A DNA stretch of 53,839 nt, taken from contig JALSIX010000109.1 in assembly GCA_026989655.1 (NCBI GenBank), positions 1 to 53,839 on the forward strand, read 5' to 3'. The notes beneath the pieces are model-generated. The model ran no database searches and was not told where the DNA came from. It saw only the letters and a list, made by a program, of their open reading frames with translations. The stretch comes from Caldilineaceae bacterium. Lineage in GTDB: Bacteria > Chloroflexota > Anaerolineae > Caldilineales > Caldilineaceae. A program made the position numbers and the translations under genes. Shown here piece after piece: positions 21,068 through 37,312 of this stretch (position 1 is its first letter; every line of letters begins with the position of its first letter).

Positions 21068-21170
21068 GGCTACCACCGTACCTTGGATGTGCCCATGGGA
21101 TGTGCGCATGGGGGCCCAGCGGCCACGGAGCTCCGGGCCCTTCCGGTCGTCTGGCTGGCTCCCTCGGAGG

Positions 21171-21662
21171 CTATCGCTCCCGGGTCCCCATGGTGGCCGC
21201 GAGCTTCACCGCCTCCACGATCTTCTGGTACCCGGTGCAACGACACAGGTTCCCCGACAGGGCCTCGCGGATGGCCTCCTCGCTGGGATCGGGGTTCTCC
21301 TCCAGGAAGGGGACCATGCTCATCAGGATGCCTGGGGTGCAGAACCCACACTGGAGGCCATGGGCCTCCCAGAAGGCTCGCTGCAGGGGATGGAGCTGTT
21401 CGGGGTCTGGCCCCGGGGCCAGACCCTCCACCGTGGTGATCCGGTGGCCCTGGGCCTGCACCGCGAACATCAGGCAGGAGCGGACCGCCTGGCCGTCCAG
21501 GAGCACCGTGCACGCGCCGCACACGCCGTGCTCACAGCCCACATGGGTCCCGGTCAGCCCCAGCTCGTGGCGCAGGAAGTCGCTCAACAGCAGCCGGGGC
21601 TCCACCTCTCGGGTGTACTCCTGGCCGTTGACCGTCACCGTTACCGTCGTTCTCTGAGCCAC
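21171..21662 (-). CDS. Molybdenum hydroxylase [2Fe-2S] subunit (CoxS/XdhC-like)
   Basis: 163 residues. The plant-ferredoxin-type cluster is CEHGVCGAC...C (about 45-65). The second [2Fe-2S] centre is built by CGFC (about 106) and NLCRCTGY (about 142). Electrons pass from the Mo centre through these clusters to the FAD subunit. The start is GTG 21662, inside a GGGAGGAG purine run whose 5' part can serve as ribosome site; the gap to the upstream FAD gene is 14 bases. Length and motifs match the family. Confidence 0.93.
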   Translation of the reverse strand: MAQRTTVTVTVNGQEYTREVEPRLLLSDFLRHELGLTGTHVGCEHGVCGACTVLLDGQAVRSCLMFAVQAQGHRITTVEGLAPGPDPEQLHPLQRAFWEAHGLQCGFCTPGILMSMVPFLEENPDPSEEAIREALSGNLCRCTGYQKIVEAVKLAATMGTRER

Positions 21663-21676
21663 AACTCCTCCCTCGT

Positions 21677-22573
21677 CTATGGCCTGGGATCGGCTCGGTT
21701 GGAGCCCTGGGCCCGGGCCACGGCCTGCGCCAAGGCCCGGCGGGCCAACACCTTGGCCAGGTGGCGACGGAAGTCCGCGCTGGCGTGGATGTCGCCCACG
21801 GGCTCGATGTCCCGTTCGCCGGCCGTCTCCGCGGCCGCCCGGAGGACCTCGGGATCCGGGCTTTGGCCGGCCAGGGCCTCCTGGGCCTGTCGGGCCTCCA
21901 CGGGCCCTTCCCCCACGCTGAGGAAGACCAGCCGGGCCCGCTCCATCGTCCCCCCTGGACCGAGGGTGACGGTGGCGGCCACCCCCACCAGCGCGAAGTC
22001 TCCATGGCGCCGGGCCACCTCCTGGAAGGACCACCCCGTCCGGCGGGGCAGGGCCGGGATCTCCACCTCCACCAGGAGCTCGTCCGGCTCCAGGGCCGTG
22101 GTGAAGAGGCCCACGAAGAAGTCCGCGGCCGGGATCCAGCGCTCCCCTCGGGGGCTTTGGAGCCGCAGGCGGGCATCCAAGGCCACGGCCACCGCGGGGA
22201 GCTCCGCGGCCGGATCCGCGTGGGCCAGGCTGCCGCCGAAGGTGCCCCGGTTCCGGATCTGGGGATGGGCGATGTGGGGCATGGTCTCGTGGAGCAGGGG
22301 AGCCCGCTCTGCCACCAGGGAGCTGCGCTCCACGGCCCGCTGTCGGGTCATGGCGCCGATGCGCAGGCCGCTCTCCGTGGGCCGGATGTAGGCCAGGTCC
22401 GCGATGGGGTTCAGGTCCACCAGCACGGCCGGCTGGGCCAGGCGGAAGTTCATGGCCGGCACCAGGCTCTGGCCGCCGGCCAAGGGCTTGGCGTCGTAGC
22501 CGAAGCGGGCCAGGATCTCCAGGGCCTGTTCCACGCTCTCGGCAGGGTAGTAGTCAAACGGCGGTGGTTTCAT
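21677..22573 (-). CDS. Molybdenum hydroxylase FAD-binding subunit (CoxM-like)
   Basis: 298 residues from ATG 22573 (GAGG seven bases upstream). FAD contacts: LAGGQSLVPAMNFRL near residue 32 and the second motif NRGTFGGSLAHADPAAELPA near 105-125. It passes electrons from the Fe-S subunit to an acceptor such as a quinone, NAD or oxygen. It lies 16 bases after the cyclase-family gene and 14 bases before the Fe-S subunit gene, so the three hydroxylase subunits are in the order M-S-L. Confidence 0.93.
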   Translation of the reverse strand: MKPPPFDYYPAESVEQALEILARFGYDAKPLAGGQSLVPAMNFRLAQPAVLVDLNPIADLAYIRPTESGLRIGAMTRQRAVERSSLVAERAPLLHETMPHIAHPQIRNRGTFGGSLAHADPAAELPAVAVALDARLRLQSPRGERWIPAADFFVGLFTTALEPDELLVEVEIPALPRRTGWSFQEVARRHGDFALVGVAATVTLGPGGTMERARLVFLSVGEGPVEARQAQEALAGQSPDPEVLRAAAETAGERDIEPVGDIHASADFRRHLAKVLARRALAQAVARAQGSNRADPRP

Positions 22574-22589
22574 GCAGGGGCCTCTTCGA

Positions 22590-23384
22590 CTATTCCTCCA
22601 CGAAGGCGACCGCTCGACAGAAGGCGGCCTCGCCGCCCTTGAAGAGCCAGGGGAAGGCGCCCAGGATGAGCCGACGGTTGTGCAGGGCCGGATTGCCGAT
22701 CTCGCCCCCCAGGTTCTCCACATGGAAGCAGTCGTAGGGGAAGAGGGCGTTATGGGTGAGCTGGTAGGCCTCGGGGGGAAAGAGGTCGTCCACCCGGTCC
22801 GCGCCGAACTTCTCCTCCACCTGTCGACGGACCCGTTGCCAGTGCTCCAGGCCGCCTTTGCCCAGGAAACGGCCGATGGGCAGGTTCATGGGGTGGTCCG
22901 TGGAGATCATGTCCACGCCCCACAGGTGGATCTTCTTGTCCAACAGCCAGTCCACGATGCTGTGGTGGGGTCCTGGATGGCGGTGGATGTACTTCTCCTC
23001 ATCCGGCTGAGAGCCGAACTGGGCGTACTTGTGCCAGCCCGTGTGGATGAAGAGGATGTCCCCCTCCCGAACCTCCACCCGGGCCTCGATGTCCTCGGGC
23101 CGGAAGACGTCCAGCTCGTCCAACATGTCCGAGAGGTCCACGATGACGCCCTCGCCGTAGAGCCAGTCCAGGGGAAGCTGGTCGATGGTCTTGCCCCCGG
23201 TGACGAAGTGGCGGGGAGCATCCAGGTGGGTGCCCATGTGGTTGCTGGTCATGATGTACTGGGCGTTGACCCCGTGCTCCGCCTTGCGCTTGATGTACTT
23301 CACCTCGAAGGGCGGATAGTAGGGCCAGAAGGGGGCGTCCTGGTTCAGGGGCTGGGAGAGATCGTAGATCTTCATCTTGGGCAT
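22590..23384 (-). CDS. Cyclase family protein (kynurenine formamidase / isatin hydrolase-like)
   Basis: 264 residues. The metal site motif HMGTHLDAPRHF (about 49-60) and the downstream H and E ligands define the cyclase superfamily (PF04199), Mn/Zn hydrolases that open amide bonds in N-formylkynurenine, isatin and related compounds. An AAGGAG site lies nine bases before ATG 23384. It sits between DUF1116 and the molybdenum hydroxylase. By context it would open a ring or hydrolyse an amide after hydroxylation of a nitrogen heterocycle; this role is inferred from position only. Confidence 0.85.
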   Translation of the reverse strand: MPKMKIYDLSQPLNQDAPFWPYYPPFEVKYIKRKAEHGVNAQYIMTSNHMGTHLDAPRHFVTGGKTIDQLPLDWLYGEGVIVDLSDMLDELDVFRPEDIEARVEVREGDILFIHTGWHKYAQFGSQPDEEKYIHRHPGPHHSIVDWLLDKKIHLWGVDMISTDHPMNLPIGRFLGKGGLEHWQRVRRQVEEKFGADRVDDLFPPEAYQLTHNALFPYDCFHVENLGGEIGNPALHNRRLILGAFPWLFKGGEAAFCRAVAFVEE

Positions 23385-23453
23385 GACATCGACTCCTTCA
23401 GGTCCATGGAAGACGGGTACCGCAGAGGGGAAACCACCGATATCGACCCCGGC

Positions 23454-24710
23454 TCAGGCGAAGCCGTACTTCTCCGCCACCGCGACCAACGCCTGGAGGA
23501 ACATGTCCAGGGGAGGGCGGACCAGCCCCGCGCCGATCTGGCCCACACCGGCCTCTCGATGGGCGATGCCGGTGTTGACCCGGGGGGTGATCCCGCTCTC
23601 CACCACCTTGCGCAGGTCGATCCCCACCGGCGTGCCCCGGAAGTCCAGGTAGGGGATGGTGAAGTACTTGTGTTCGGCCACCGTGATCTCGTACATCTCC
23701 AGGGTGGCGTTGATGGCGTCCTGGGGGGTGCCGCTGACGAAGGTGACGATGGCCGGCGCCGCGGCCATGGCAAAGGCACCGATCCCCGCGGTCTCGGTGA
23801 TGGTGCTGTCGCCGATGTCCGGGTTCGCGTCCTCGGCCTGGAAGCCGGGGAAGTAGAGCCCCTTGGGGATCTCCGCGGGCCCGGTGAACCAGCGATCACC
23901 CATGCTGCTCACCCGGATGCCGAAGTCCGTGCCGTTGCGGGCCATGGTGGTGACCAGGGTGCTGCCCTCCACCCCGTGGGCCGCGTCGGCCATGGCCTTG
24001 CACGCGGCCATCACCGGGTTGAGGACGCTGAGCGCGTTGTCGCCCAGGAACTGGAGGATCTCCCCGGCCACGTCGCTGTTGGGGGCTGCCCGGGCGATGT
24101 GGGGGGCCAGGGCCTTGGTGAAGAGGATGGAGCCCGCCTTGTTGCGGTTGTGTCCCTCGTCGCCCATGTGGAGCGCCTCGGCCAGCAGGGCGCGGATGTC
24201 GATCCCGCCCGAGGCCGCGATGGCCTCTCCCAGGACCGGGGCCATGACGTCGTGCATCCAGCGCAGACGCTGCTGGACGTCCTCGCCGTACGCGCCGTAG
24301 CGCAGGACCCGGCCGTAGCCCTCGTTCAAGTTCGAGAAGGCCCGGTTGCCGTGGGCCTGGTTCTCCAGGATGTACACGGCCATGGAGGGGGAGATGACGC
24401 CGGCCATGGGCCCCACCGCGCTGTGCTGGTGGCAGGGTTCCAGGTGGACCGCTCCGGAGGTGACCAGGGCCTCGGCCTCCTGGGGGCTGTGGGCCTTGCC
24501 CTCGAAGATCAACGCGCCGATGATCGCGCCGCGCAGGGGCCCCGAGGCCCGCTCCCAGGTGATGGGCGGCCCCGCGTGGAGCAACAGGTCCTCCCGCATG
24601 CCGGGGATCACGTCCAACGCCCGGCCCAGGCCCACCAGCACCGGGTGGGCCTCCATCATCCGTTCCACCGCGGTCGCGTTGGCCGCATCGATGTCCACAG
24701 AGGGTCTCAT
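23454..24710 (-). CDS. DUF1116 family protein, YlbE/AllG-like (oxamate carbamoyltransferase component)
   Basis: 418 residues, close to E. coli YlbE/AllG (about 419). Family features: EPCHQHSAVGPMAG (about 97-110), GNRAFSNLNEGYG, MGDEGHNRNKAG and the C-terminal GAGLVRPPLDMF. From literature recalled rather than checked, E. coli fdrA-ylbE-ylbF (allFGH) encode an oxamate carbamoyltransferase that yields carbamoyl phosphate. Here only the fdrA and ylbE homologues are present; a DUF2877 (allH/ylbF) homologue and carbamate kinase are not in the window. GGAGGAG precedes ATG 24710 by eight bases. It follows fdrA by 57 bases. Confidence 0.88.
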   Translation of the reverse strand: MRPSVDIDAANATAVERMMEAHPVLVGLGRALDVIPGMREDLLLHAGPPITWERASGPLRGAIIGALIFEGKAHSPQEAEALVTSGAVHLEPCHQHSAVGPMAGVISPSMAVYILENQAHGNRAFSNLNEGYGRVLRYGAYGEDVQQRLRWMHDVMAPVLGEAIAASGGIDIRALLAEALHMGDEGHNRNKAGSILFTKALAPHIARAAPNSDVAGEILQFLGDNALSVLNPVMAACKAMADAAHGVEGSTLVTTMARNGTDFGIRVSSMGDRWFTGPAEIPKGLYFPGFQAEDANPDIGDSTITETAGIGAFAMAAAPAIVTFVSGTPQDAINATLEMYEITVAEHKYFTIPYLDFRGTPVGIDLRKVVESGITPRVNTGIAHREAGVGQIGAGLVRPPLDMFLQALVAVAEKYGFA

Positions 24711-24767
24711 AGGGGTCTCCTCCTCGAAGGTTGGACGGATGTGCAGAGACCTTCGGCCCAAACCGGA

Positions 24768-26573
24768 TCACCCGCGCGAGCCGCTCATCCGGGCCAGGAT
24801 GCCCATAAGCCGCTGATCGCCCCCGGCCGGCGGGCGCCAGTCCACATGGACCACCGAAGCGCCTTGGGCCTGGAGGGTCTCCGCGAAGATCTCCAGCCCC
24901 ACGTTGATGGCCGCCACGGGCTGGGAGAGATCCGGCACCGGCCCCGAAGCCGTGGAGGAGGACGCGTCCGACCGGGGTTCCCAGGCCTCGGCGGGATGTG
25001 ATGGGGAGACCGCCCCTTGTCCTCGGCCTGCCAACAGGGAACCAATGGCCTGGACCGCCCGATCGTGGCGGTGGAAGACCACCGCGCCGGCCTCCTGGAG
25101 CCGGGCCACCTGTCCGTCCAGCTCCTGGGGATCCCGGTCGGTGCCGATGACCACCGCGACCACGGCCAGGGCACGCCCTTCCTGGCCGGCCCGATCCCGA
25201 GCCCGGCGGATGGCGGGCGCCAGCTCGCCGGCCGGGTCCGGATGGGCCCCGTAGCCCAACACCACATCCAGGAGGATCGCCGCCACCTCGGGGTCCTGGG
25301 CCTCGTCCAACAGCCGACGGACGCGGAGCTCGTTGTCCAACATGGGGTGCAGCCGCCCCACCGTGAACTCATCCGCCCCCAGGTCCACCACCGTGTGGGC
25401 CTGGCTGTGGTGGGGGCTCTCCAGGGCCATCCCCCCGGGCAGGGGCACGTTGGAGTAGAGGGGAGCCAGGTATCCGCGCAACAGGGCCAGGGCCTCGGAG
25501 GCCAGGGTGCCGCCGGAGTACAGGCCTCGGAGATAGCGTTGCTCGGGCTGGGCCTTGGCCAGGGCCGCGGCCAGGCGTTCCCGGGCCGGATCGCGCTCCT
25601 GTGCCTCCGGGGGGGCAGCCATGCCCGCCTGTTCCAGGGCCATCCGCGCGGCCTCATCCAGGGTGGGGGCCACATGGATTCCGGGAAACCGGGAGGCCAA
25701 CTGCGCCGGATCCAGGCCCACGAAGTGGACCACCACAGGCTTGCCCGTGTCCCGGGCCACGGCCAGGATCTCCCCGGCGATCCGGGGGGAGGGCGGCTTG
25801 GAGATGAGGACGATGACCCGGGTGTCGGGGTCCTGGGCCAGGATGGCCAGGCCCTGACGGGCCGTGAGGCCTCCCACCGGATCCGAGAGATCCCGCCCTC
25901 CGGTGCCCAGGCCATGGGAGAGGCCCCCGCCCAGACGGTGGACCGCGCAGGCCACCGTCTGCAGGCCCGTGCCCGCGGCCGCCACCACGCCCACAGGTCC
26001 CCGACGCACTCCGTTGGCAAAGCCCAGGCCCACGCCCCGGACCAACGCGGTGCCGCAGTCCGGGCCCATGACCAGAAGGCCGGCCTCCACAGCCCGGTTC
26101 TTCAGGCGGATCTCCTCCTCCAGAGGGACATTGTCGCTGTAGAGGAAGACATGCTTGCCCAGGTCCAGGGCCTGGTCGGCCACGCCGGCCGCGTAGCGGC
26201 CAGGCACCGAGACTAGCACCCACTGGGCTTCCGGCAGGAGCTTGGCAGCCCCCTCCAACGTCCGGGGACGATACCCCATAGAGGTCTCCCGGCTGCGCCG
26301 CCGGGCCAGCAGGTGGTCGATCTGGGCCAGGGCCGCCCGGGCCGCGGCCTCGTCCACGGCCCGGACCACCACCACCAGGTCGTCCGGGCGAGCGGCCTCC
26401 ACCTGGGGCGTGCACAGGCCACTCTGCTCCAGGAGTTCCTTGTTGGCCGGGGTGCCCATGACCACACCCGCATCCTCCACCCCGGGCAGCTCCACCAGAG
26501 CCCGCTGGAGCTGCATCAGGACCACGGAATCGTAGTAGGCGCCGGAACGGATCTCGGCCAGAACGTTGGACAT
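24768..26573 (-). CDS. fdrA: FdrA family acyl-CoA synthetase-like protein (AllF-like)
   Basis: 601 residues, a succinyl-CoA-ligase-like protein. The N-terminal regulatory-like segment (YYDSVVLMQL, GVVMGTPANKELL) is followed by a CoA/nucleotide-binding domain with GVVAAAGTGLQ and GTGGRDLSDPVGG, the FdrA signature, and a C-terminal ligase-like domain (LYSGGTLASEA, DLGADEFTVGRLHPM). FdrA was first noted as a suppressor of dominant-negative FtsH mutants and is now placed with YlbE in carbamoyl transfer from oxalurate-like compounds. ATG 26573 is used; a TTG at 26585 is possible. It is the first gene of the operon, about 100 bases after a strong promoter. No carbamate kinase is nearby. Confidence 0.9.
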   Translation of the reverse strand: MSNVLAEIRSGAYYDSVVLMQLQRALVELPGVEDAGVVMGTPANKELLEQSGLCTPQVEAARPDDLVVVVRAVDEAAARAALAQIDHLLARRRSRETSMGYRPRTLEGAAKLLPEAQWVLVSVPGRYAAGVADQALDLGKHVFLYSDNVPLEEEIRLKNRAVEAGLLVMGPDCGTALVRGVGLGFANGVRRGPVGVVAAAGTGLQTVACAVHRLGGGLSHGLGTGGRDLSDPVGGLTARQGLAILAQDPDTRVIVLISKPPSPRIAGEILAVARDTGKPVVVHFVGLDPAQLASRFPGIHVAPTLDEAARMALEQAGMAAPPEAQERDPARERLAAALAKAQPEQRYLRGLYSGGTLASEALALLRGYLAPLYSNVPLPGGMALESPHHSQAHTVVDLGADEFTVGRLHPMLDNELRVRRLLDEAQDPEVAAILLDVVLGYGAHPDPAGELAPAIRRARDRAGQEGRALAVVAVVIGTDRDPQELDGQVARLQEAGAVVFHRHDRAVQAIGSLLAGRGQGAVSPSHPAEAWEPRSDASSSTASGPVPDLSQPVAAINVGLEIFAETLQAQGASVVHVDWRPPAGGDQRLMGILARMSGSRG

Positions 26574-26633
26574 GGAGGATCCCAAGTTGAGTCTGGGTAC
26601 GGTTCGACGTGTGAGGAAGGGTTGTCCGTCGAC

Positions 26634-27067: not shown

Positions 27068-30000
27068 ATGCGCGAACGCCCCCGGATCTTTGCCCTGTTG
27101 GTGGGCATCGATGGCTACAGCAGCCCCACCATCCCAGATCTCCGAGGCTGCGTGGCCGATGTCCGGGCCGTCCGGGCCTTTCTGGTCCACCGACTCCAGG
27201 TCCCCGAGACGCGGATCTGGACCCTCACCTCCAGTGTTCCCCAGGTTGCTGGCGAACGCCTGCCCACCCGAGCCCACATCCTGGCCGCCTGGCAGGAGAT
27301 CGTCCAACAGCTCCGGCCCGGCGACCAGTTCTTCTTCCACTACAGCGGGCACGGCGCTCAGGCCCCCTCGGTGGACCCGGACGAGCCCGACGGCTTCGAC
27401 GAGACCATCGTGCCCATGGACAGCCGGACCACCGACGCCGCGGGACGACCGGTGTTCGACCTCCTGGACAAGGAGCTGGCCGCGCTCATCGCCATGGCCG
27501 AGGACCGAGGGGCCCAGGTGGCCGCGGTCTTGGACTGCTGCCACTCGGGCTCGGGGACCCGGGCAGCCCTGAGGCCAGACCCCACCAGGCCCCTGGCACG
27601 TCGCTGCCGGGCCGACCATCGCCCCCGGGAGCTGGCGTCGACGGTGCCGGGGACGGCCCAACACCTGGAGGCGGCCCGGAGGCTGCGCCGTTCCAGCGGC
27701 TGGAAGGTCCCAGGGCGGCACGTTCTCCTGGCAGCAGCGCGGGACGAGGAACTGAGCTACGAGTATCGCTCCCCCGAGACCGGCCAGTGGCACGGCGCGG
27801 CCACCTATTTCCTGGTCCAGGCCCTGCAGGGCTACCGTCCGGACATGACCTGGCAGGAGGTGTACGACGTGGTCCGGACCCGGGTCCACGGGATCTATCC
27901 CCAACAGACACCTCAACTGGAGGGGCCTGGGAACCGTCGGATCTTCGGCGAGGAGGCCCCACCCGTGGCACCCTATCTGCGGGTCACGGAGGTGGAGGCC
28001 ACACCCTCGGGCCCGGTGGTCCAGGTGGATGGCGGGGTCGCGGTGGGCCTCGTGGAGGGCAGCCAGGTGGCCATCTACCCACCGGGCAGCGACCTCCAGG
28101 GCGAGCCCCTGGCCCAGGGCTCGGTGATCCGGGCAGACGTGGACCATGCCTGGGTCCAACTTCCCCCGGGGCTGCCGGTGGATGCCGTCCCCTTGCCGGC
28201 CCGGGCCCGCATCCTGAGCCTGGGCTTCGAGACCCTGGTCTACGCCGTGGCCGTCTCGGACCCCTGGGTCCGGGCCGCGCTGCAGGGGGAACCGCCCTTC
28301 CAGGACCGAAAACCCTCTCCCTTCCTGGAGGTGGTCTCCCACGACGCACCCGGGGCCCACTTCCGGGTCGACGCCACCCCAGAGGGCTACGCGATCCAGG
28401 ACGGCAGCGGGGCCCAGATCGTCGCGACGATGCCCCCCCGCACCCAGGCCGGGGCAGTCCAGGTGGCCCAGCACCTGCACCACCTGGCCGTGTTCCACAA
28501 CGTACGGGCCCTGCGTAACCCCACCCCCGCCCCCTTGCTGGCCCATGCCCTGGAGGTCCGGGCCTACAGCTACACCCGGGCCGGGTTCAGCGCGCCCAAG
28601 GACGGCATCCCCCTGGACGAAGTGGACCACATCCTGACCCCCGGCCGCCGCATCTGGGTGACGGTGCGCAACCTGAGCGCGCGCACCCTCTACGTGGCCG
28701 TCTTCAACCTGAGCAGCAACTTCGGCATCCATCGGATCTACCCGCCCCATGCTCCCCACCAGACGGTGGTCCCGGGCGCGGCCTTTCACATCCCCCGGCT
28801 GAGACCGGAGATCCACCATCCTTCCCTGCCGGCCGCCACCGAGGTCATCAAGGTCTTCGCCAGCACGGTTCCCATGGACTTCGACGTGCTCCAGCTTCCA
28901 GACCTGAACCAACCGGAGGCGACCGCCGCGGAGACCCGCCGCGCGACCGGCCCCCTGGCCGAGCTGCTGGAGGGAGTCCGGCACACCGGGACCCGCAAAC
29001 TGGTGGTGACCGAGGACATCCACGATCGGTGGATCACCTGCCAGATGGAGATCACCGTGCTCAACGAACCGACCCGCCACCCCCTGCCGGCCGGTCAACG
29101 GGCGGTGGAGCTGGGCACCCCTCTGGAACTCCGGGTGGAGAAGCCGCCGGAATTCCAGGGAGAGATCGTCCTGAGCACCCTCCTCCAGGCCACCCGAGGC
29201 CCGGACGTGCAGCATCCTGTGACACCGCCCCCGGCCCTGGAAAGTCCCGAGGGCCAACGCCTCTTCTCGCCGATCGCCCTGGAGGGCACCGCCCGCTCGG
29301 CCGGAGCATCCCCGGGGATCCTGGCCATCAATGCCAGCCCCACGGCCCTGGAGACCCTGGACCCGGACCATCCCCTGCGGCTGGAGCTGAGCCTGGACGC
29401 GTCCGAGGAGCTGGAAGGCGTGGTGGCCGTGGCCTGGGACGGACAACACCACTATCTGGTGGGCCAGACGACGTCCCTGTCGCCCCCGGACGAAAGGACC
29501 GGCCGACGGCGCGTGACGGTCACGGTGGCCCGGCTCCCCCTTCCTGCAGATCTCTCCGCGGGGGAGCCTATCCTCTCTGCCCGCGATCTGCCGCCCGAGC
29601 TGGCCCAGAGCCCTACCGCAGGGGAACGGCCCCACCGGGATCTTCGACGCACTGTCCGCCTCTTCCTCTACCGGATCCACCGGCGAGAGCCTCCGCCGGA
29701 CATGGGCGTACGGCGGGCCACGCTGGACGAGGACGGCACTCCGGTCTACGCGCCGATCCACCCCGAGGAGGTGGCCCAGGCCAGTCGGGTGGCCCTGCTG
29801 GTCCACGGGCTCACCGGTGACACCCGCTGGCTGGTCCAGCGGCTCTGGCCCCACCTCCAGAAATGGGCTGCCTACGACCTGCTCCTGGCCTTCGACTACG
29901 AGAGCCTGACCGTCCCCATCGAGGAGAACGGCCATCGCCTGGCCCAGGCACTCCAGACCCTGGGCTTTGGCCCCACGGACGGGATCCATCTGGATGTCTT

Positions 30001-30616
30001 CGCCCACGGCCTGGGCACCCAGGTGGTGCGGGCCATGGTGGAGCTGGCCGGCGGCCATGCCTTCGTGGACCGGGCCTTCCTGGCCGGTCCACCCAACGCG
30101 GGGACCCGTCTGGCCGATGTGAAGGGGTTGGCCTTCTGGAGCGCCACCCTGCTCCTGAACCAGGCCGGGGTCGGGCCGGTGACCCTCATCGCAGAGTGGG
30201 CCCTGAAGAAGGCCCTGGACGCCGGGGTCGCGGTGGACGATCTGCGTCCGGGCTCGGAGTTCTACCGGAAGCTGAACGAGGCCGACAGCCCCCTGGACGT
30301 CCCCTACTTCGTCCAGATCGGGGAGAACAGCCGCCGGGCCAAGCCCTTCCCAGGAGAGGTGCTCTTCGCCAAAAGCGGTGTCCTTCGCCTGGTGGACATG
30401 GGGTTGGATCGGCTCCTGGGGGGACCCAACGACCTGGTGGTCAGCGTGGCCAGTGCCCGGGCCGTGCGCCAGGGCCGCTGGCCCCAACTCCAGGTGACGG
30501 TGCTGCCCGGACATCACTTCCAGTACTTCCAGACGCCGGAGAGCCTGGAGGCCCTGGCCCCGATCCGGGCGGATAGCACGACTTTTGGACAGAGTTCCGG
30601 GCCTGGGCTAGAATAG
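27068..30616 (+). CDS. Orthocaspase fused to a degenerate alpha/beta-hydrolase domain
   Basis: 1182 residues. ATG 27068 has AAAGGAG seven bases upstream; ATG 27038 has none. Residues 1 to about 265 are a clan CD caspase fold: FALLVGIDGY strand, His95 in HYSGHG and Cys158 in LDCCHSG, the catalytic dyad of type I metacaspase-like enzymes (Arg/Lys cutters in known cases). Then comes a beta-rich region (about 300-400), a DUF4384-like segment (about 500-620, GRRIWVTVRNLS..TLYVAVFNLSS..IYPP) and further beta-rich stretches. From about 905 an alpha/beta-hydrolase fold begins (VALLVHGLTGDT), but the elbow is AHGLG at about 978-982: Gly replaces the nucleophile Ser of GxSxG. There is no signal peptide or membrane helix, so it is cytosolic. 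It may sense and cleave; the C-terminal fold may bind rather than hydrolyse. The gene ends four bases before tRNA-Sec. Confidence 0.85.
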   Translation: MRERPRIFALLVGIDGYSSPTIPDLRGCVADVRAVRAFLVHRLQVPETRIWTLTSSVPQVAGERLPTRAHILAAWQEIVQQLRPGDQFFFHYSGHGAQAPSVDPDEPDGFDETIVPMDSRTTDAAGRPVFDLLDKELAALIAMAEDRGAQVAAVLDCCHSGSGTRAALRPDPTRPLARRCRADHRPRELASTVPGTAQHLEAARRLRRSSGWKVPGRHVLLAAARDEELSYEYRSPETGQWHGAATYFLVQALQGYRPDMTWQEVYDVVRTRVHGIYPQQTPQLEGPGNRRIFGEEAPPVAPYLRVTEVEATPSGPVVQVDGGVAVGLVEGSQVAIYPPGSDLQGEPLAQGSVIRADVDHAWVQLPPGLPVDAVPLPARARILSLGFETLVYAVAVSDPWVRAALQGEPPFQDRKPSPFLEVVSHDAPGAHFRVDATPEGYAIQDGSGAQIVATMPPRTQAGAVQVAQHLHHLAVFHNVRALRNPTPAPLLAHALEVRAYSYTRAGFSAPKDGIPLDEVDHILTPGRRIWVTVRNLSARTLYVAVFNLSSNFGIHRIYPPHAPHQTVVPGAAFHIPRLRPEIHHPSLPAATEVIKVFASTVPMDFDVLQLPDLNQPEATAAETRRATGPLAELLEGVRHTGTRKLVVTEDIHDRWITCQMEITVLNEPTRHPLPAGQRAVELGTPLELRVEKPPEFQGEIVLSTLLQATRGPDVQHPVTPPPALESPEGQRLFSPIALEGTARSAGASPGILAINASPTALETLDPDHPLRLELSLDASEELEGVVAVAWDGQHHYLVGQTTSLSPPDERTGRRRVTVTVARLPLPADLSAGEPILSARDLPPELAQSPTAGERPHRDLRRTVRLFLYRIHRREPPPDMGVRRATLDEDGTPVYAPIHPEEVAQASRVALLVHGLTGDTRWLVQRLWPHLQKWAAYDLLLAFDYESLTVPIEENGHRLAQALQTLGFGPTDGIHLDVFAHGLGTQVVRAMVELAGGHAFVDRAFLAGPPNAGTRLADVKGLAFWSATLLLNQAGVGPVTLIAEWALKKALDAGVAVDDLRPGSEFYRKLNEADSPLDVPYFVQIGENSRRAKPFPGEVLFAKSGVLRLVDMGLDRLLGGPNDLVVSVASARAVRQGRWPQLQVTVLPGHHFQYFQTPESLEALAPIRADSTTFGQSSGPGLE
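30585..30614 (+). promoter_or_regulatory. Promoter of tRNA-Sec, inside the end of the caspase gene
   Basis: -35 TTGGAC (30585-30590), an 18-base spacer and -10 TAGAAT (30609-30614). The -10 overlaps the caspase stop codon TAG (30614-30616). The usual 6-7 base distance puts the start at about 30621, the first base of the tRNA. Confidence 0.7.
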
Positions 30617-30620
30617 CCAT

Positions 30621-30716
30621 GGGAGGGCATGTGCCCCGGTGGGTGCCCTGGTCTTCAAAACCAGTGGCAGGCGGCGCAGAGCCGGCTGCGGTGGGTTCGA
30701 CTCCCACGCCCTCCCG
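30621..30716 (+). tRNA. selC: tRNA-Sec, anticodon TCA
   Basis: It folds as a bacterial selenocysteine tRNA. There is an 8-bp acceptor stem (GGGAGGGC with GCCCTCCC), a 6-bp D stem with a 4-base loop (GTGCCC CGGT GGGTGC, two G-U pairs) and an anticodon arm CTGGT-CTTCAAA-ACCAG with TCA at 34-36. A long variable arm (GCAGGCGGC / GCCGGCTGC, one mismatch) and a 5-bp T arm (GTGGG TTCGACT CCCAC) follow. The discriminator is G; CCA is not encoded (GCACC follows). The 8+5 acceptor/T stack is diagnostic. It implies UGA decoding by SelA/SelB/SelD made elsewhere in this genome; no selenoprotein gene is recognised in the window. Confidence 0.96.
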
Positions 30717-30829
30717 CACCCGGACCCGGTGCGATCCCCGACCACGGCCCCGAGGAGGAGAGGCCCATCCCCTTGCCTGGACCGTGTCCATCCAGCGTGA
30801 TCGAGCCCAGTTCGCGGGACTGCCTGTCC

Positions 30830-31258
30830 ATGGCCGAGATCGAGCTGTTCGACGACGAACCCCTGCACTTCCAGCACATCCTGGTCTACCCCTATCCCGA
30901 TCTGCGTCGCCTCTGGGTGCGGGCCTGGCTGCCGCCCCAGAGGAACGTGTCCCCCAACGTGGAGTACCGGGTCCTGAACCCGGACGGCAGCGAGAACAAC
31001 AGCATGGTGCTGCTGGCCCAGACGGACACCAAGCTGGACCACACCCTCCACCTGCGAGAGCCCATCCTGCCCGGCGCCACCTACCGCATGGTGGCCGAGC
31101 TCTCCGTGGGCCTGGGCCAGGACGCGGAGCTGGTGGATCGTCAGGAGTTCGACCTGATCCTGGAGTTCCGCGATCCAGAGGCCGGAGAGCCCGGTTTCGG
31201 CGTGGGCCTGGAAGCCCTCTTCCCCAGCCGCTCCCCCCGCCAGGAGTCGAAGGGGTGA
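30830..31258 (+). CDS. Hypothetical beta-rich 142-aa protein, partner of the S8 protease
   Basis: I do not recognise the family. The protein is acidic and beta-rich (LVYPYPDLRRLWVRAWLPP, YRVLNPDGSENNSMVLLAQ, TLHLREPILPGATYRMVAEL), consistent with a single Ig-like or C2-like sandwich. It has no signal peptide. ATG 30830 is the first Met of the conserved-looking part; a GTG at about 30797 in the same frame is possible and neither has a clear ribosome site. Its TGA overlaps the GTG of the protease gene (GTGA), so the two are translated together and the products may interact, for example as a protease chaperone or inhibitor. Function is unknown. Confidence 0.6.
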   Translation: MAEIELFDDEPLHFQHILVYPYPDLRRLWVRAWLPPQRNVSPNVEYRVLNPDGSENNSMVLLAQTDTKLDHTLHLREPILPGATYRMVAELSVGLGQDAELVDRQEFDLILEFRDPEAGEPGFGVGLEALFPSRSPRQESKG

Positions 31259-33129
31259 GCCGTTGCCCCCTCTGCGGCGGTCCAGTGGACCCCCAGTTGC
31301 TGGCCCAGACCACCGAGCTCCACCCACCGGTCCGGCGTCTGGTCCAGTCCGAGCACCCGAATTGGCGTCCCCAGGAGGGCATCTGCCCCACCTGCGCCCG
31401 AGACCGCGCGCGACGCCATGCCCGACGGCGAAGTCCGGTCTCCCTCCACACCCATACCTTCCCCCACACCACCTTCCCCTACTACCATCCCGAGGAGTTC
31501 ACCGTGTTGTCCCAGTGGGAGCGTCTGCCCCACCACCCAGGCTTCGACGGCCAGGGGATCGGGGTGGCCTTCCTGGACAGCGGATACTACCCCCATCCCG
31601 ATTTCGTGGCGGGCTCCTTGAACCTAAGGGCCTTTCTGGACCACATCGGCAGTCCGGCCCGGGTTCGACGCTTCCTGGAAGGCCAGGGGACCCGGGTGCG
31701 CCAGTACGCCAACCTGGTGGCGGGCCGGGCCCACACCGGGTTCGATCTGCCCAGCCTGTGGAGCGATGCGCCCAGCAGTTGGCACGGCCAGATGACCGCG
31801 GCCCTGGCCGCGGGCAACGGCAGCCTCAGTGAAGGCCGTTTCCGGGCCTACGCGCCGGCCGCGACCATGGTCTGGATCAAGATCGGCCGCCCCAACGGGA
31901 GCATCCCCGAGCCCGAGATCCTGGCCGGGCTCCGTTGGCTGCTGGCCAAGGACCATCTCCCGCGCCTGGGCATCCGGGTGGTCAACATCAGTGTCGGGGG
32001 CGACCACCCCCAGTCCTGGTGGGAGAACCCCGTCTGCCTGGCCGTGGAGGCCCTGACCCAGGCCGGCGTCCTGGTGGTGGCCGCCGCAGGCAACAGCGGC
32101 CGGGAGGAGCTGTTGGCCCCCGCCCAGGCCCCTTCCGCGATCACCGTGGGCGGCATGGACGACGGCAACCGGCGCTGGCGGGTGGACCGGCCCAAGGAGC
32201 GAAGGCGCCTCCGACTCTACCGCCACAGCTACGGCCGGGTGTGGGCCGCGGACCGGCCCATCGGGAAGCCGGAGCTCCTGGCCCCGGCCTGCTGGCTCCC
32301 GGCCCCCGTGCTGCCCGGGAGCCCGATCTGCCGGGAGATGTGGGTGCTGGGCCGAGCCTGGCAGGCCCTGGACCGGGGACGGGCTGACCGGGCTCGGCAG
32401 CTTCTCTGGAGACATCGCGACCTGCTGGCCCTCACCGCCCCGGTGCGGCACGCGGGGCCCAGGACCCTGCGCCGACTCCTGCGCTTCCGCATGAACCGGC
32501 ACAAGTGGGTCCACCCCTTCTACCAACACGTGGACGGCACCAGCGTCTCTGCCCCCCAGGTCGCGGCCGTGGCCGCGCAGATGTTCCAGGCCCATCCCGG
32601 CCTCACCCCCCAGCGGGCCAAGGCCCTGCTGATGGCCAGCGCCCTCCCCCTGGACCACCTGCCCCAGGCCCAGACAGGGGCCGGGCTCCTCCAGCCGGCC
32701 CGAGCCGTGGCCCTGGCCCTGCGGGATGCAGGCGGCCCGCTGGCCGGGTTCCCGGTCAGCGGCACCCGCCTGGAGAGCGCCGGGCTGCGCGAGCTGGGGC
32801 TCCCGGTCCAAGCGGCCCAGGCCCTGGAGGCAGGCCCAGGCCCCCAGGCCCCTGCCATGGCCTCGGTCCACTACCTGGGCACCTGGGCCCCAGAGGCCCA
32901 GGCCGTCAGCCTGGTGGGCTCGTTCAACGGATGGCGCCCCGGCGTGCTCCCCCTGTACCGGACCGATAGGGGGTGGTGGCACACGGCCGTGGCGTTCCCC
33001 CCCGGAGAACACCTGTATCGTTTCTGGGTGGTGGACCGCAGCGGGAACGGCCGCTGGCAGCTGGACGGGGAGAACCCTGTGCGGGAGGAGAGCGGGTATC
33101 TGGAGCCCCACAATGTCATCGTGGCATGA
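31255..33129 (+). CDS. Cytosolic S8 subtilase with N-terminal zinc ribbon and C-terminal CBM48/AMPK-beta domain
   Basis: 624 residues from GTG 31255 (GAAGG upstream; overlaps the previous stop). Residues 4-47 contain CPLCGG...CPTC, a zinc-ribbon pair. The S8 catalytic triad is complete: Asp108 (FLDSG), His177 (WHGQMTAA), Asn280 (AAAGNSG) and Ser430 (DGTSVSAP). An Arg-rich helical insertion of ~80 residues (about 355-420) separates the KPELLAPA strand from the Ser loop. Residues about 540-624 are a glycogen-binding CBM48/AMPK-beta fold (VSLVGSFNGWRPG, PPGEHLYRFWVVD). There is no signal peptide or propeptide, which is unusual for subtilases. It could be an intracellular protease targeted to glycogen or another alpha-glucan. 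The 142-aa protein precedes it and an esterase follows. Confidence 0.88.
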   Translation: MSRCPLCGGPVDPQLLAQTTELHPPVRRLVQSEHPNWRPQEGICPTCARDRARRHARRRSPVSLHTHTFPHTTFPYYHPEEFTVLSQWERLPHHPGFDGQGIGVAFLDSGYYPHPDFVAGSLNLRAFLDHIGSPARVRRFLEGQGTRVRQYANLVAGRAHTGFDLPSLWSDAPSSWHGQMTAALAAGNGSLSEGRFRAYAPAATMVWIKIGRPNGSIPEPEILAGLRWLLAKDHLPRLGIRVVNISVGGDHPQSWWENPVCLAVEALTQAGVLVVAAAGNSGREELLAPAQAPSAITVGGMDDGNRRWRVDRPKERRRLRLYRHSYGRVWAADRPIGKPELLAPACWLPAPVLPGSPICREMWVLGRAWQALDRGRADRARQLLWRHRDLLALTAPVRHAGPRTLRRLLRFRMNRHKWVHPFYQHVDGTSVSAPQVAAVAAQMFQAHPGLTPQRAKALLMASALPLDHLPQAQTGAGLLQPARAVALALRDAGGPLAGFPVSGTRLESAGLRELGLPVQAAQALEAGPGPQAPAMASVHYLGTWAPEAQAVSLVGSFNGWRPGVLPLYRTDRGWWHTAVAFPPGEHLYRFWVVDRSGNGRWQLDGENPVREESGYLEPHNVIVA

Positions 33130-33163
33130 AGGCCATGCGGGCCATCGTGGTGTGAGGTGTGCC

Positions 33164-33880
33164 ATGGACCGGGAATATCACCGCTGGTTCAGCCCCCACC
33201 TGGGGCGCGACATGGAGATGCTGGTCTTCGGCCACGGCGGGGCCCGGGTGCTGGTCTTCCCCACCAGCCAGGGGCGGTTCTTCGAGTTCGAGGACCGGGG
33301 GATGGTGAACGCGCTGGAAGAGCACCTGGTGAACGGCTGGATCCAGCTCTACTGCGTGGACAGCGTGGACGCGGAGAGCTTCTACAACCGGAATGCACAT
33401 CCTCGGCTGCGCATCGAACGCCATCTCCAGTACGAGAGGTACCTGGTCCACGAGGTGTTGCCCTTCAGCGAACACCGGAACGGCAACCCCTTTCTCATCA
33501 CGTTGGGGGCCAGCTTCGGCGCCTACCACGCGGTGAACTTCGCGTTCCGCCACCCGGATCGGGTGGGCCGGGTGCTGGGCCTGAGCGGCAAATACGACAT
33601 CTCCACCTTCTTCGACGGCTACTACGACACGGACATCTACCTCCACATCCCGCTCCACTACATCCCCAACCTGACCGACCCCTGGTACATCGGCCACTTG
33701 CAGCGGATGGACATCATCCTGGCCATCGGCCGGGAGGATCCCAACGTGGAGGAGAACCGTCGTCTGAGCGGGCTCCTGTGGGAGAAGGGGATCGGCAATG
33801 CGTTGCGGGAATGGGACGGCTGGGCCCACGACTGGCCCTGGTGGCAGCAGATGGTCCGCCTCTACATCGGCGGTGCATGA
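33164..33880 (+). CDS. Esterase, alpha/beta-hydrolase (PF00756 esterase family)
   Basis: 238 residues. GAGGTG lies five bases before ATG 33164. The nucleophile is Ser117 in GASFG, with the acid probably Asp192 (IGRED) and His222 (GWAHDWPWW). The short enzyme resembles esterase D/Fes-like hydrolases, with no signal peptide. It follows the CBM48 protease by 34 bases on the same strand and ends six bases before a convergent gene. Unlike the hydrolase domain of the caspase protein upstream, this one keeps its Ser. The substrate is unknown. Confidence 0.87.
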   Translation: MDREYHRWFSPHLGRDMEMLVFGHGGARVLVFPTSQGRFFEFEDRGMVNALEEHLVNGWIQLYCVDSVDAESFYNRNAHPRLRIERHLQYERYLVHEVLPFSEHRNGNPFLITLGASFGAYHAVNFAFRHPDRVGRVLGLSGKYDISTFFDGYYDTDIYLHIPLHYIPNLTDPWYIGHLQRMDIILAIGREDPNVEENRRLSGLLWEKGIGNALREWDGWAHDWPWWQQMVRLYIGGA

Positions 33881-35884: not shown

Positions 35885-37312
35885 TCAAGGCAGGGGCTCG
35901 GGATCCACCACCGCGCCCATGAAGAGAATGGCCTGGCTGTAGCTGTCCCAGATGGCCAGGAAGAAGGGCCGATCGGCCACCACGGACAGGGGCGCGGATT
36001 CGGCGGCCACCCCCACCACCGTGGCCGCGGCGGCCACGGTCCCTTCCTCGTTGACCTCCAGGACCGCGCCGTGTTCGACCAAGGAGATGTAGAGGTTGTT
36101 GCCCTCTTGGCGGAGGTCCTCGGGCAACATGGCCAGGAAATGGGCCTGCCTGGGGTGGAAGGCGCTCTCCATCCCCAGGGCCTGGAGATCCGCGTTGAGC
36201 CTGCGGCGGAACTCCACCTTGAAGCGAGGCAGCCCCACGAAGACCTCCTGGGGTCGGAGACGGCCGATCCACTCCTCCCAGGACGTCGGGGTCAAGCGGG
36301 CCAGGAAGGTGTCCAGATCGCTGCCCTCTGTGGGCACGAAGACCAGCATCTGGATGCGTTCTCCCTGGTAGGCCAGGGCCACGGCCGCGAACTCCTCGGT
36401 GAAGAGCGCGGGGAAGGTCCCCTCCTGCACCATCATGGCCACGCTCTTCACCGTGCCATCGGCCCGGCGGAAGTCCCAGGGTTGAGTGCGCGCGGGGTCG
36501 AAGGCCTCCAACCAGTTGCCCTTGAAGTAGATCGCGTTGACCAGGAAGAGGATCTCGTCCCGGATCTCGTCCAGGAGCTTCCGGATCCTGTCCTGAGTGG
36601 CCTGGGCGATCCAGCCGTTGATCCGGTCCACCGCGGCCGGGTCCGTGAAGTCCAGGACCTCCAGAGCCGCGCCGTAGTGGGCGCGGTTACGGGCCACGAA
36701 GTCCGGATCCAGCCGCCATCCCTGCCGCAGCCACAGGGAATTGGCGATGGACAGCTCCACCCCCGGGGCGGCCCGGAGGCTGTCCTGCAGCTCCCGGGCG
36801 GCCTGGTTCATCTGCTCCAACGGCATCCCCTGGATGTGCAACACCTGGGCCATCTCGGCCGCGGTCCCCTGGCCGGCGCCGTTGTAGGTCATCTGGAGGG
36901 CCAGGGCCACGCTCAACGGGGAGAAGAGGATGTTCGCCTCCAGCGCCGAAGGCGGGTCGGGTGTGGGCAGGGGAGAGACGCTCCGGGCCGGAGAGGGCAA
37001 CGGCGAGACGGTGGCCTGCCCGGGTGGGAGAGCGGCCCCTGTGGGGCCGAGGCTCGGCCCCAGGCCCGCCATCCGGTGCAGGAGGTCGAAGCCAAAGCGG
37101 TTGTTGGCCTCGGCCAGACGGCGGCCCGCTGCACTCAACGGGGGTGGCGGCGGCAGGGAGGGGGTGGGCGATGGCCCGGGTCCACTGGGCCCGGGGGCGG
37201 GCATGGTCGGATCGCTACAGCCGGCCAGCAGGGCCCACAGGATCAGGGCCCACAGGCCCTGGGACGCCAGCTTCCACAGGCCACGCCGTGGCCGTTCAAC
37301 GTATGTGGACAT
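35885..37312 (-). CDS. Lipoprotein serpin (serine protease inhibitor)
   Basis: 475 residues from ATG 37312. A signal peptide and lipobox LAGC (Cys about 32) anchor it outside the membrane, followed by a Pro-rich linker. The serpin core starts NNRFGFDLL; about 40 Pro/Ser-rich residues are inserted between helix A and the ILFSPLSVALAL strand. Inhibitory features are intact: hinge EEGTVAAAAT (422-431) fits the P17-P8 consensus. Counting from the hinge and from the distal PFF strand both give P1 Glu438 - P1' Ser439 (Glu codon at 35999-36001). Inhibitory serpins trap serine or cysteine proteases; P1 Glu suggests a Glu-cutting target. It is first in a likely operon with the SIS and BtpA genes. Confidence 0.93.
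   Translation of the reverse strand: MSTYVERPRRGLWKLASQGLWALILWALLAGCSDPTMPAPGPSGPGPSPTPSLPPPPPLSAAGRRLAEANNRFGFDLLHRMAGLGPSLGPTGAALPPGQATVSPLPSPARSVSPLPTPDPPSALEANILFSPLSVALALQMTYNGAGQGTAAEMAQVLHIQGMPLEQMNQAARELQDSLRAAPGVELSIANSLWLRQGWRLDPDFVARNRAHYGAALEVLDFTDPAAVDRINGWIAQATQDRIRKLLDEIRDEILFLVNAIYFKGNWLEAFDPARTQPWDFRRADGTVKSVAMMVQEGTFPALFTEEFAAVALAYQGERIQMLVFVPTEGSDLDTFLARLTPTSWEEWIGRLRPQEVFVGLPRFKVEFRRRLNADLQALGMESAFHPRQAHFLAMLPEDLRQEGNNLYISLVEHGAVLEVNEEGTVAAAATVVGVAAESAPLSVVADRPFFLAIWDSYSQAILFMGAVVDPEPLP

What the first reader, a model, noticed from the sequence alone, without database searches (positions are those of the whole stretch)
27068..33880. Possible protease-based signalling or defence module: orthocaspase, 142-aa protein, zinc-ribbon S8/CBM48 protease, esterase
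A cytosolic caspase-like protease, a second cytosolic protease of a different clan with targeting domains, a small coupled partner and a hydrolase lie on one strand over 6.8 kb. Caspases, subtilases and hydrolase folds recur in bacterial conflict and cell-death systems, usually in compact clusters like this. selC sits inside the cluster, which is unusual for a housekeeping RNA.
Basis: inference. Interest (0 to 1): 0.75.

Follow-up and report, generated by a model that had tools for sequence, protein, structure and literature searches.

The report
Selenocysteine-tRNA-led protease–amide-ligase gene cluster
In filamentous Chloroflexota bacteria, the gene for the selenocysteine tRNA sits at the head of an old, conserved gene row coding for a small scaffold-like protein, a cell-internal protease, an esterase and, in most relatives, four amide-bond-forming enzymes, with a caspase-like protease just upstream; it looks like a core peptide- or protein-modifying pathway rather than an antiviral defence system.

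Summary
The genes are real and nearly where stated: an orthocaspase with a fused α/β-hydrolase domain, selC, a 142-aa protein (S142), a zinc-ribbon S8–CBM48 protease and an esterase. In 37 genomes of the window's family (Caldilineaceae), S142–S8 are adjacent in 17 of 17 genomes that have both, and S8–esterase in 15 of 17. selC lies upstream of S142 on the same strand within 12 kb in 21 of 31, and within 1 kb in 10 genera. The caspase–selC junction is kept in 5 genera. The selC–S142 pair also occurs in other Anaerolineae at 31–43% protein identity. Defence is not supported: no defence genes flank it, distribution looks vertical, and the genome's conflict-type caspase (caspase–NACHT–FGE) lies elsewhere. 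selC is not functionally required: one relative lost selC and SelA but kept the row. Best reading: a core, cytosolic amide-ligation and peptide-processing pathway led by a selC promoter, with the caspase as an ancestral neighbour. Its substrate is unknown.

The parts
27068..30616 (+). Orthocaspase (1182 aa): N-terminal C14 caspase domain (His in HYSGHG, Cys in DCCHSG), beta-rich middle region, C-terminal alpha/beta-hydrolase domain DUF7379 whose Ser nucleophile is lost here (HGLG)
30586..30614 (+). Promoter-like site TGGACA-17-TAGAAT, ending 6 nt before selC and lying inside the end of the caspase ORF; the -10 (TACAAT/TAGAAT, 5-8 nt before selC) recurs in most family loci
30621..30717 (+). selC, tRNA-Sec (anticodon TCA)
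30830..31258 (+). S142: 142-aa protein, predicted Ig-like beta-sandwich, restricted to class Anaerolineae in the genomes searched; recurrent partner of selC and/or amide ligases
31255..33129 (+). S8 subtilase with N-terminal zinc ribbon (CxxC...CxxC) and C-terminal CBM48; catalytic Asp/His/Ser intact, no evident signal peptide; overlaps S142 by 4 nt
33164..33880 (+). Esterase (PF00756; GASFG nucleophile elbow, catalytic His conserved)

Best explanation
The segment is the front half of an ancestral Caldilineaceae gene row: caspase / selC-S142-S8(CBM48)-esterase-ATP-grasp ligase-circularly permuted ATP-grasp ligase-two GCS2/YbdK-type carboxylate-amine ligases. A promoter just before selC most likely drives a mixed tRNA-mRNA transcript (selC-S142-S8-EST, and in relatives the ligases). 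The proteins most likely form a cytosolic pathway. The four ATP-dependent ligases join amino acids or a small peptide by amide bonds to a metabolite or protein. S142, a small Ig-like beta-sandwich, acts as adaptor or substrate-binding subunit. The S8 protease, steered to alpha-glucan by CBM48, and the esterase trim or remove the product. The orthocaspase is a separate transcription unit, an older neighbour that may regulate the pathway. In this genome the ligases are on another contig. Shown: gene content, active-site residues, conserved order, fold model and independence from Sec. Inferred: co-transcription, cytosolic location, all biochemistry and the roles of S142 and the caspase.
For: Conserved order in 37 family genomes: S142-S8 17/17, S8-EST 15/17, EST-ATP-grasp 17/20, selC-S142 21/31 in order within 12 kb. 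Neighbourhood maps show the ligases downstream of EST, identified as PF04107 GCS2, NCBIfam carboxylate-amine ligase PRK13515 and RimK-like, and CP-ATP-grasp like 3n6x. Outside the family S142 is followed directly by GCS2 in about ten loci, and in L220 selC-S142-EST-ATP-grasp-CP-ATP-grasp-GCS2-GCS2 is contiguous. Own ligases sit on G000:C60 in the same order. Promoter-like -10 before selC in most family loci and no terminator-like hairpin in the selC-S142 spacer in 24 of 25 loci. 4-nt overlap S142/S8. S142 fold: pLDDT 88.7, Ig-like domain of GH2 enzymes, Z 12.4, 1.8 A over 104 residues. Divergences of S142, S8, EST and caspase correlate.
Against: No substrate, product or expression data. In this genome the ligases are unlinked as far as the draft shows, so the working link rests on relatives. 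S142 also occurs beside an SMC gene and a transporter in some Anaerolineae, so it is not exclusive to ligases. The caspase is linked in only some genera, and its presence does not track S8. Contigs are draft, which blurs absences. An Ig-like fold is common and tells no function.
Confidence: 0.45

Rival explanations
1. Regulated cell-death or antiphage module: caspase and S8 protease act on infection, with S142 as partner and esterase as effector.
For: PADLOC generic 'caspase' (E 2.8e-28) and 'subtilase' (1e-13) models match. Caspase-alpha/beta-hydrolase coupling is described in VMAP conflict systems of multicellular bacteria (PMC7159879). Caldilineaceae are filamentous (general knowledge).
Against: No PADLOC match in the ten flanking window genes and none in the ligases or EPS genes tested in relatives. 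The caspase has no detected NTPase or sensor domain and falls short of the EACC1-type model (41.9 vs cut-off 140 bits). S142 and the ligases are near-universal in the family rather than patchy. The genome's conflict-type caspase-NACHT-FGE protein lies on another contig.
Confidence: 0.15
2. Mere synteny: selC, caspase and the S142-S8-EST operon are unrelated genes that stay together because nothing has separated them.
For: G022 lost selC and SelA and kept the rest. In one genus selC lies on another contig or far away, and in another 8-11 kb away. Caspase and S8 presence are not associated.
Against: Order kept across ten genera with 40-50% protein divergence and across several families for selC-S142. 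selC neighbourhoods in class members without S142 beside selC show no shared order. Random placement within 1 kb would give 10 of 14 genera with negligible probability, relatedness ignored. It explains selC and caspase linkage well, but S142-S8-EST-ligase linkage poorly.
Confidence: 0.3
3. Selenium-linked function: Sec-tRNA supply is wired to the protease-ligase pathway, or charged tRNA-Sec serves the ligases.
For: selC is the first gene of the predicted unit and precedes S142 in several families.
Against: G022 (99% complete) and G052 lack both selC and SelA yet keep S142; G022 keeps the whole caspase-S142-S8-EST-ATP-grasp row. The ORFs have no in-frame TGA. GCS2 and ATP-grasp enzymes are not known to use tRNA (established knowledge).
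Confidence: 0.05

Closest known systems
Amidoligase gene clusters (GCS2/YbdK + ATP-grasp + circularly permuted ATP-grasp with peptidases; Iyer et al. 2009, recalled from memory, paper not held)
   Same: Same enzyme classes, with peptidases and alpha/beta hydrolases as neighbours; predicted peptide synthesis or tagging
   Different: Here preceded by selC and S142, with an S8-CBM48 protease; I could not check whether this exact row was described
EACC1-caspase two-gene conflict system (PMC7159879)
   Same: Caspase with a small partner gene nearby, in multicellular bacteria
   Different: EACC1 is a TM-helix protein encoded 5' of the caspase; S142 is a predicted soluble beta-sandwich 3' of it; caspase score far below the EACC1-type cut-off
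VMAP/vWA-MoxR systems with caspase and alpha/beta-hydrolase (PMC7159879)
   Same: Caspase coupled to an alpha/beta-hydrolase domain
   Different: Fused in one protein, no vWA, MoxR or VMAP seen near; hydrolase nucleophile lost in the window copy
Orthocaspases (PMC6426788)
   Same: p20 domain with His-Cys dyad, extra C-terminal domains
   Different: Particular middle region and DUF7379 hydrolase; sits next to selC
selABC loci and tRNA-mRNA operons of other bacteria (general knowledge)
   Same: selC co-transcribed with protein genes
   Different: The partners here are not Sec-machinery genes; SelA is on another contig

Membership tests
Orthocaspase / peptidase C14 | C14 p20 domain | tested here: met
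   PF00656 73.6 bits, cut-off 21.4
Orthocaspase / peptidase C14 | Catalytic His-Cys dyad | tested here: met
   HYSGHG and DCCHSG, conserved in 16 of 17 orthologues aligned
Orthocaspase / peptidase C14 | Cleavage after Arg/Lys | not testable with these tools
   Needs an enzyme assay
EACC1-caspase conflict system | EACC1-type caspase domain | tested here: not met
   NF047832 41.9 bits, cut-off 140
EACC1-caspase conflict system | 5' neighbour EACC1 with a TM helix | tested here: not met
   Upstream genes are FdrA/AllG, divergent; S142 lies 3' and is a beta-sandwich with no Pfam match
VMAP / vWA-MoxR ternary system | vWA, MoxR and VMAP genes nearby | tested here: not met
   No vWA or MoxR domain in the window genes scanned with Pfam
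Known antiphage system (PADLOC) | Complete set of system genes | tested here: not met
   Only generic caspase and subtilase models and weak IetS matches
Peptidase S8 (subtilase) | S8 domain with Asp/His/Ser triad | tested here: met
   PF00082 104.8 bits; DSG, WHG and GTS motifs conserved
Type VII mycosin | TIGR03921 cut-off | tested here: not met
   76.9 bits against 278.75
Carboxylate-amine ligase (GCS2/YbdK; own genome contig C60) | NCBIfam equivalog cut-off | tested here: met
   NF010039 452 and 518 bits, cut-off 371
Amidoligase gene cluster | Ligases contiguous with the protease/esterase genes | tested here: inconclusive
   Contiguous in relatives; in this genome on another contig
tRNA-Sec | Rfam RF01852 gathering score | tested here: met
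   73.6 bits, cut-off 47

The most novel reading that the evidence does not exclude
A previously undescribed selC-led operon in which tRNA-Sec and a protease-amide-ligase pathway with its own dedicated scaffold protein (S142) are transcribed as one unit, so that Sec decoding capacity and a peptide- or protein-tagging system are co-regulated, with an orthocaspase as controller.
Probability: 0.1. Interest if true: 0.8.

Novelty: new variant of a known kind. Interest (0 to 1): 0.5.

Why it matters
It points to a widespread, uncharacterised core pathway of filamentous Chloroflexota that joins four amide-forming enzymes, a protease with a glycogen-binding-type domain and a caspase neighbour. It would give a first function to the S142 family and a natural setting in which an orthocaspase can be studied outside defence. 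It also shows how gene order across genera can overturn a defence reading drawn from domain names alone.

Tried and rejected
- S8 query in viral contigs: no match. Caspase in phage records: one weak match to the caspase domain only. ATP-grasp c5 in plasmids: none; S8 in plasmids: only generic subtilases.
- S142 sequence against the PDB: nothing significant.
- Serpin (35888-37300) as part of the module: patchy in the family and beside the cluster in no other genome, so rejected.
- Sec dependence: rejected because G022 lacks selC and SelA yet keeps the row; no convincing selC remnant was found in its spacer.
- selC as a fixed landmark of the class: rejected, because its neighbours differ in class members without S142 beside it.
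- Caspase middle region: the model is moderate (pLDDT 79.7). Only an N-terminal ~85-residue barrel-like part matched (best Z 10.8, 2.4 A, 77 residues). The rest of the region was barely tested.
- A first alignment of S142 failed because some loci were given on the wrong strand; redone as A1.
- Literature searches found no description of this row; the key amidoligase survey was not held.

Full report
What is there. The window belongs to a 4.09 Mb draft genome whose family-level relatives carry record titles of Caldilineaceae (Chloroflexota, Anaerolineae). On the + strand lie an orthocaspase (27068-30616), selC (30621-30717), a 142-aa ORF called S142 here (30830-31258), an S8 protease with zinc ribbon and CBM48 (31255-33129), and an esterase (ATG 33164-33880). 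Four bases lie between the caspase stop codon and selC, S142 and S8 overlap by 4 nt, and 34 nt separate S8 and the esterase.

Anatomy. The caspase has an intact His–Cys dyad and a C-terminal α/β-hydrolase domain (DUF7379). In the window copy that domain has lost its Ser nucleophile (HGLG), while most relatives keep HSMG. The S8 keeps its Asp/His/Ser triad, and the four N-terminal cysteines are conserved in all 14 orthologues aligned with it, including one from another family. The esterase keeps its GxSxG and His. S142 has no Pfam or NCBIfam match. Its AlphaFold model (pLDDT 88.7) is an Ig-like β-sandwich, closest to the Ig-like domain of GH2 glycosidases (Z 12.4, 1.8 Å over 104 residues). Its most conserved motif is YPYPDLxRxWxR.

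Conservation. I searched 60 relatives for each protein, for the ligases, for selC and for SelA, and counted linkage among the 37 family genomes. S142 and S8 are adjacent in 17 of 17 genomes that have both (10 genera). S8 and EST are in order in 15 of 17, and EST and the ATP-grasp gene in 17 of 20. selC and S142 are in order and on one strand within 12 kb in 21 of 31, and within 1 kb in 14 genomes of 10 genera. Caspase–selC is within 1 kb in 6 of 25 genomes (5 genera). In a separate collection, 25 of 58 S142 loci have selC within 1 kb upstream, including 13 of 21 loci below 45% identity. S142 was found in 19 of 301 genomes sampled across the phylum, all of the same class.

The missing half. In relatives the row continues past the esterase into a RimK-like ATP-grasp protein (c5), a circularly permuted ATP-grasp protein (c11, like 3n6x) and two GCS2 carboxylate-amine ligases. 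Outside the family S142 is followed directly by GCS2, and L220 has selC–S142–EST–c5–c11–GCS2–GCS2. In the window's genome c5–c11–GCS2–GCS2 is intact and in the same order on contig C60. Upstream, several relatives have a divergent exopolysaccharide-like set (sortase, glycosyltransferase/sugar transferase, SH3–DUF11, TMEM260-like, DUF4012) beside the caspase or selC. This suggests the ancestral order: exopolysaccharide set (divergent) / caspase–selC–S142–S8–EST–c5–c11–GCS2–GCS2.

Transcription. A promoter-like TGGACA-17-TAGAAT ends 6 nt before selC, inside the caspase ORF's end. The TA[CG]AAT box recurs 5-8 nt before selC in most family loci, and 24 of 25 selC–S142 spacers have no terminator-like hairpin. 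I infer a tRNA–mRNA transcript that begins at selC and excludes the caspase. This is a sequence inference only.

Is selC functionally needed? No. G022 (99% complete) has no true selC or SelA but keeps caspase–S142–S8–EST–c5. G052 also keeps S142 without either. No convincing selC remnant was found in the G022 spacer. In class members without S142 beside selC, selC's neighbours differ from genome to genome.

Defence? PADLOC finds only generic caspase and subtilase models in the cluster. It finds nothing in the ten flanking window genes, and in relatives only one HEAT-repeat hit in a neighbouring gene. The caspase falls far below the EACC1-type cut-off. The genome does hold a conflict-type caspase–NACHT–FGE protein, on contig C36. 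Pairwise divergences of S142, S8, EST and caspase correlate with each other (Pearson 0.63-0.86) and less with enolase (0.46-0.72), which fits mainly vertical inheritance. Caspase and S8 presence are not associated (p=0.46), so the caspase link rests on gene order alone.

Verdict. The best-supported reading is a core cytosolic amide-ligation and peptide-processing pathway led by selC's promoter, with an orthocaspase as ancestral neighbour. Gene content and order are shown; co-transcription and chemistry are inferred. Simple synteny for selC and the caspase remains a serious rival.

Noticed in passing
G000 contig C36, 480-4214 (L233): The genome's other caspase is a 1244-aa caspase-NACHT-FGE-sulfatase protein, a classic conflict-system architecture, unlike the window caspase.
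   Followed up: partly
window 35888-37300 (-): A serpin (PF00079, 334 bits) with a lipoprotein-like N-terminus lies about 2 kb from the esterase end of the cluster; patchy in the family and not beside the cluster in any other genome.
   Followed up: yes
window 18680-26585 (-): Xanthine-dehydrogenase-like molybdenum hydroxylase subunits, a putative cyclase, AllG and FdrA form a purine/allantoin-type degradation cluster divergent from the caspase; selenium-dependent molybdenum hydroxylases come to mind given the neighbouring selC.
   Followed up: no
L130, L131, L132 and other loci of two genera: Genera g8 and g16 keep S142 before the two GCS2 ligases but show no S8 protease and esterase there; selC is far away (g8) or 8-11 kb upstream (g16).
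   Followed up: partly
L221, L223, L224, L227: In some Anaerolineae S142 follows an SMC gene and an EamA-type transporter instead of selC or ligases.
   Followed up: no
L086/L129 (G001): The caspase orthologue of G001 has DCGH where others have DCCH, so it may be a pseudo-orthocaspase.
   Followed up: no
L120:2-6140 and equivalents in L121, L124, L126, L128, L129: Exopolysaccharide-type genes (sortase, GT2-sugar transferase, DUF4012) sit divergently beside the caspase or selC in many relatives, hinting at a cell-surface link.
   Followed up: partly
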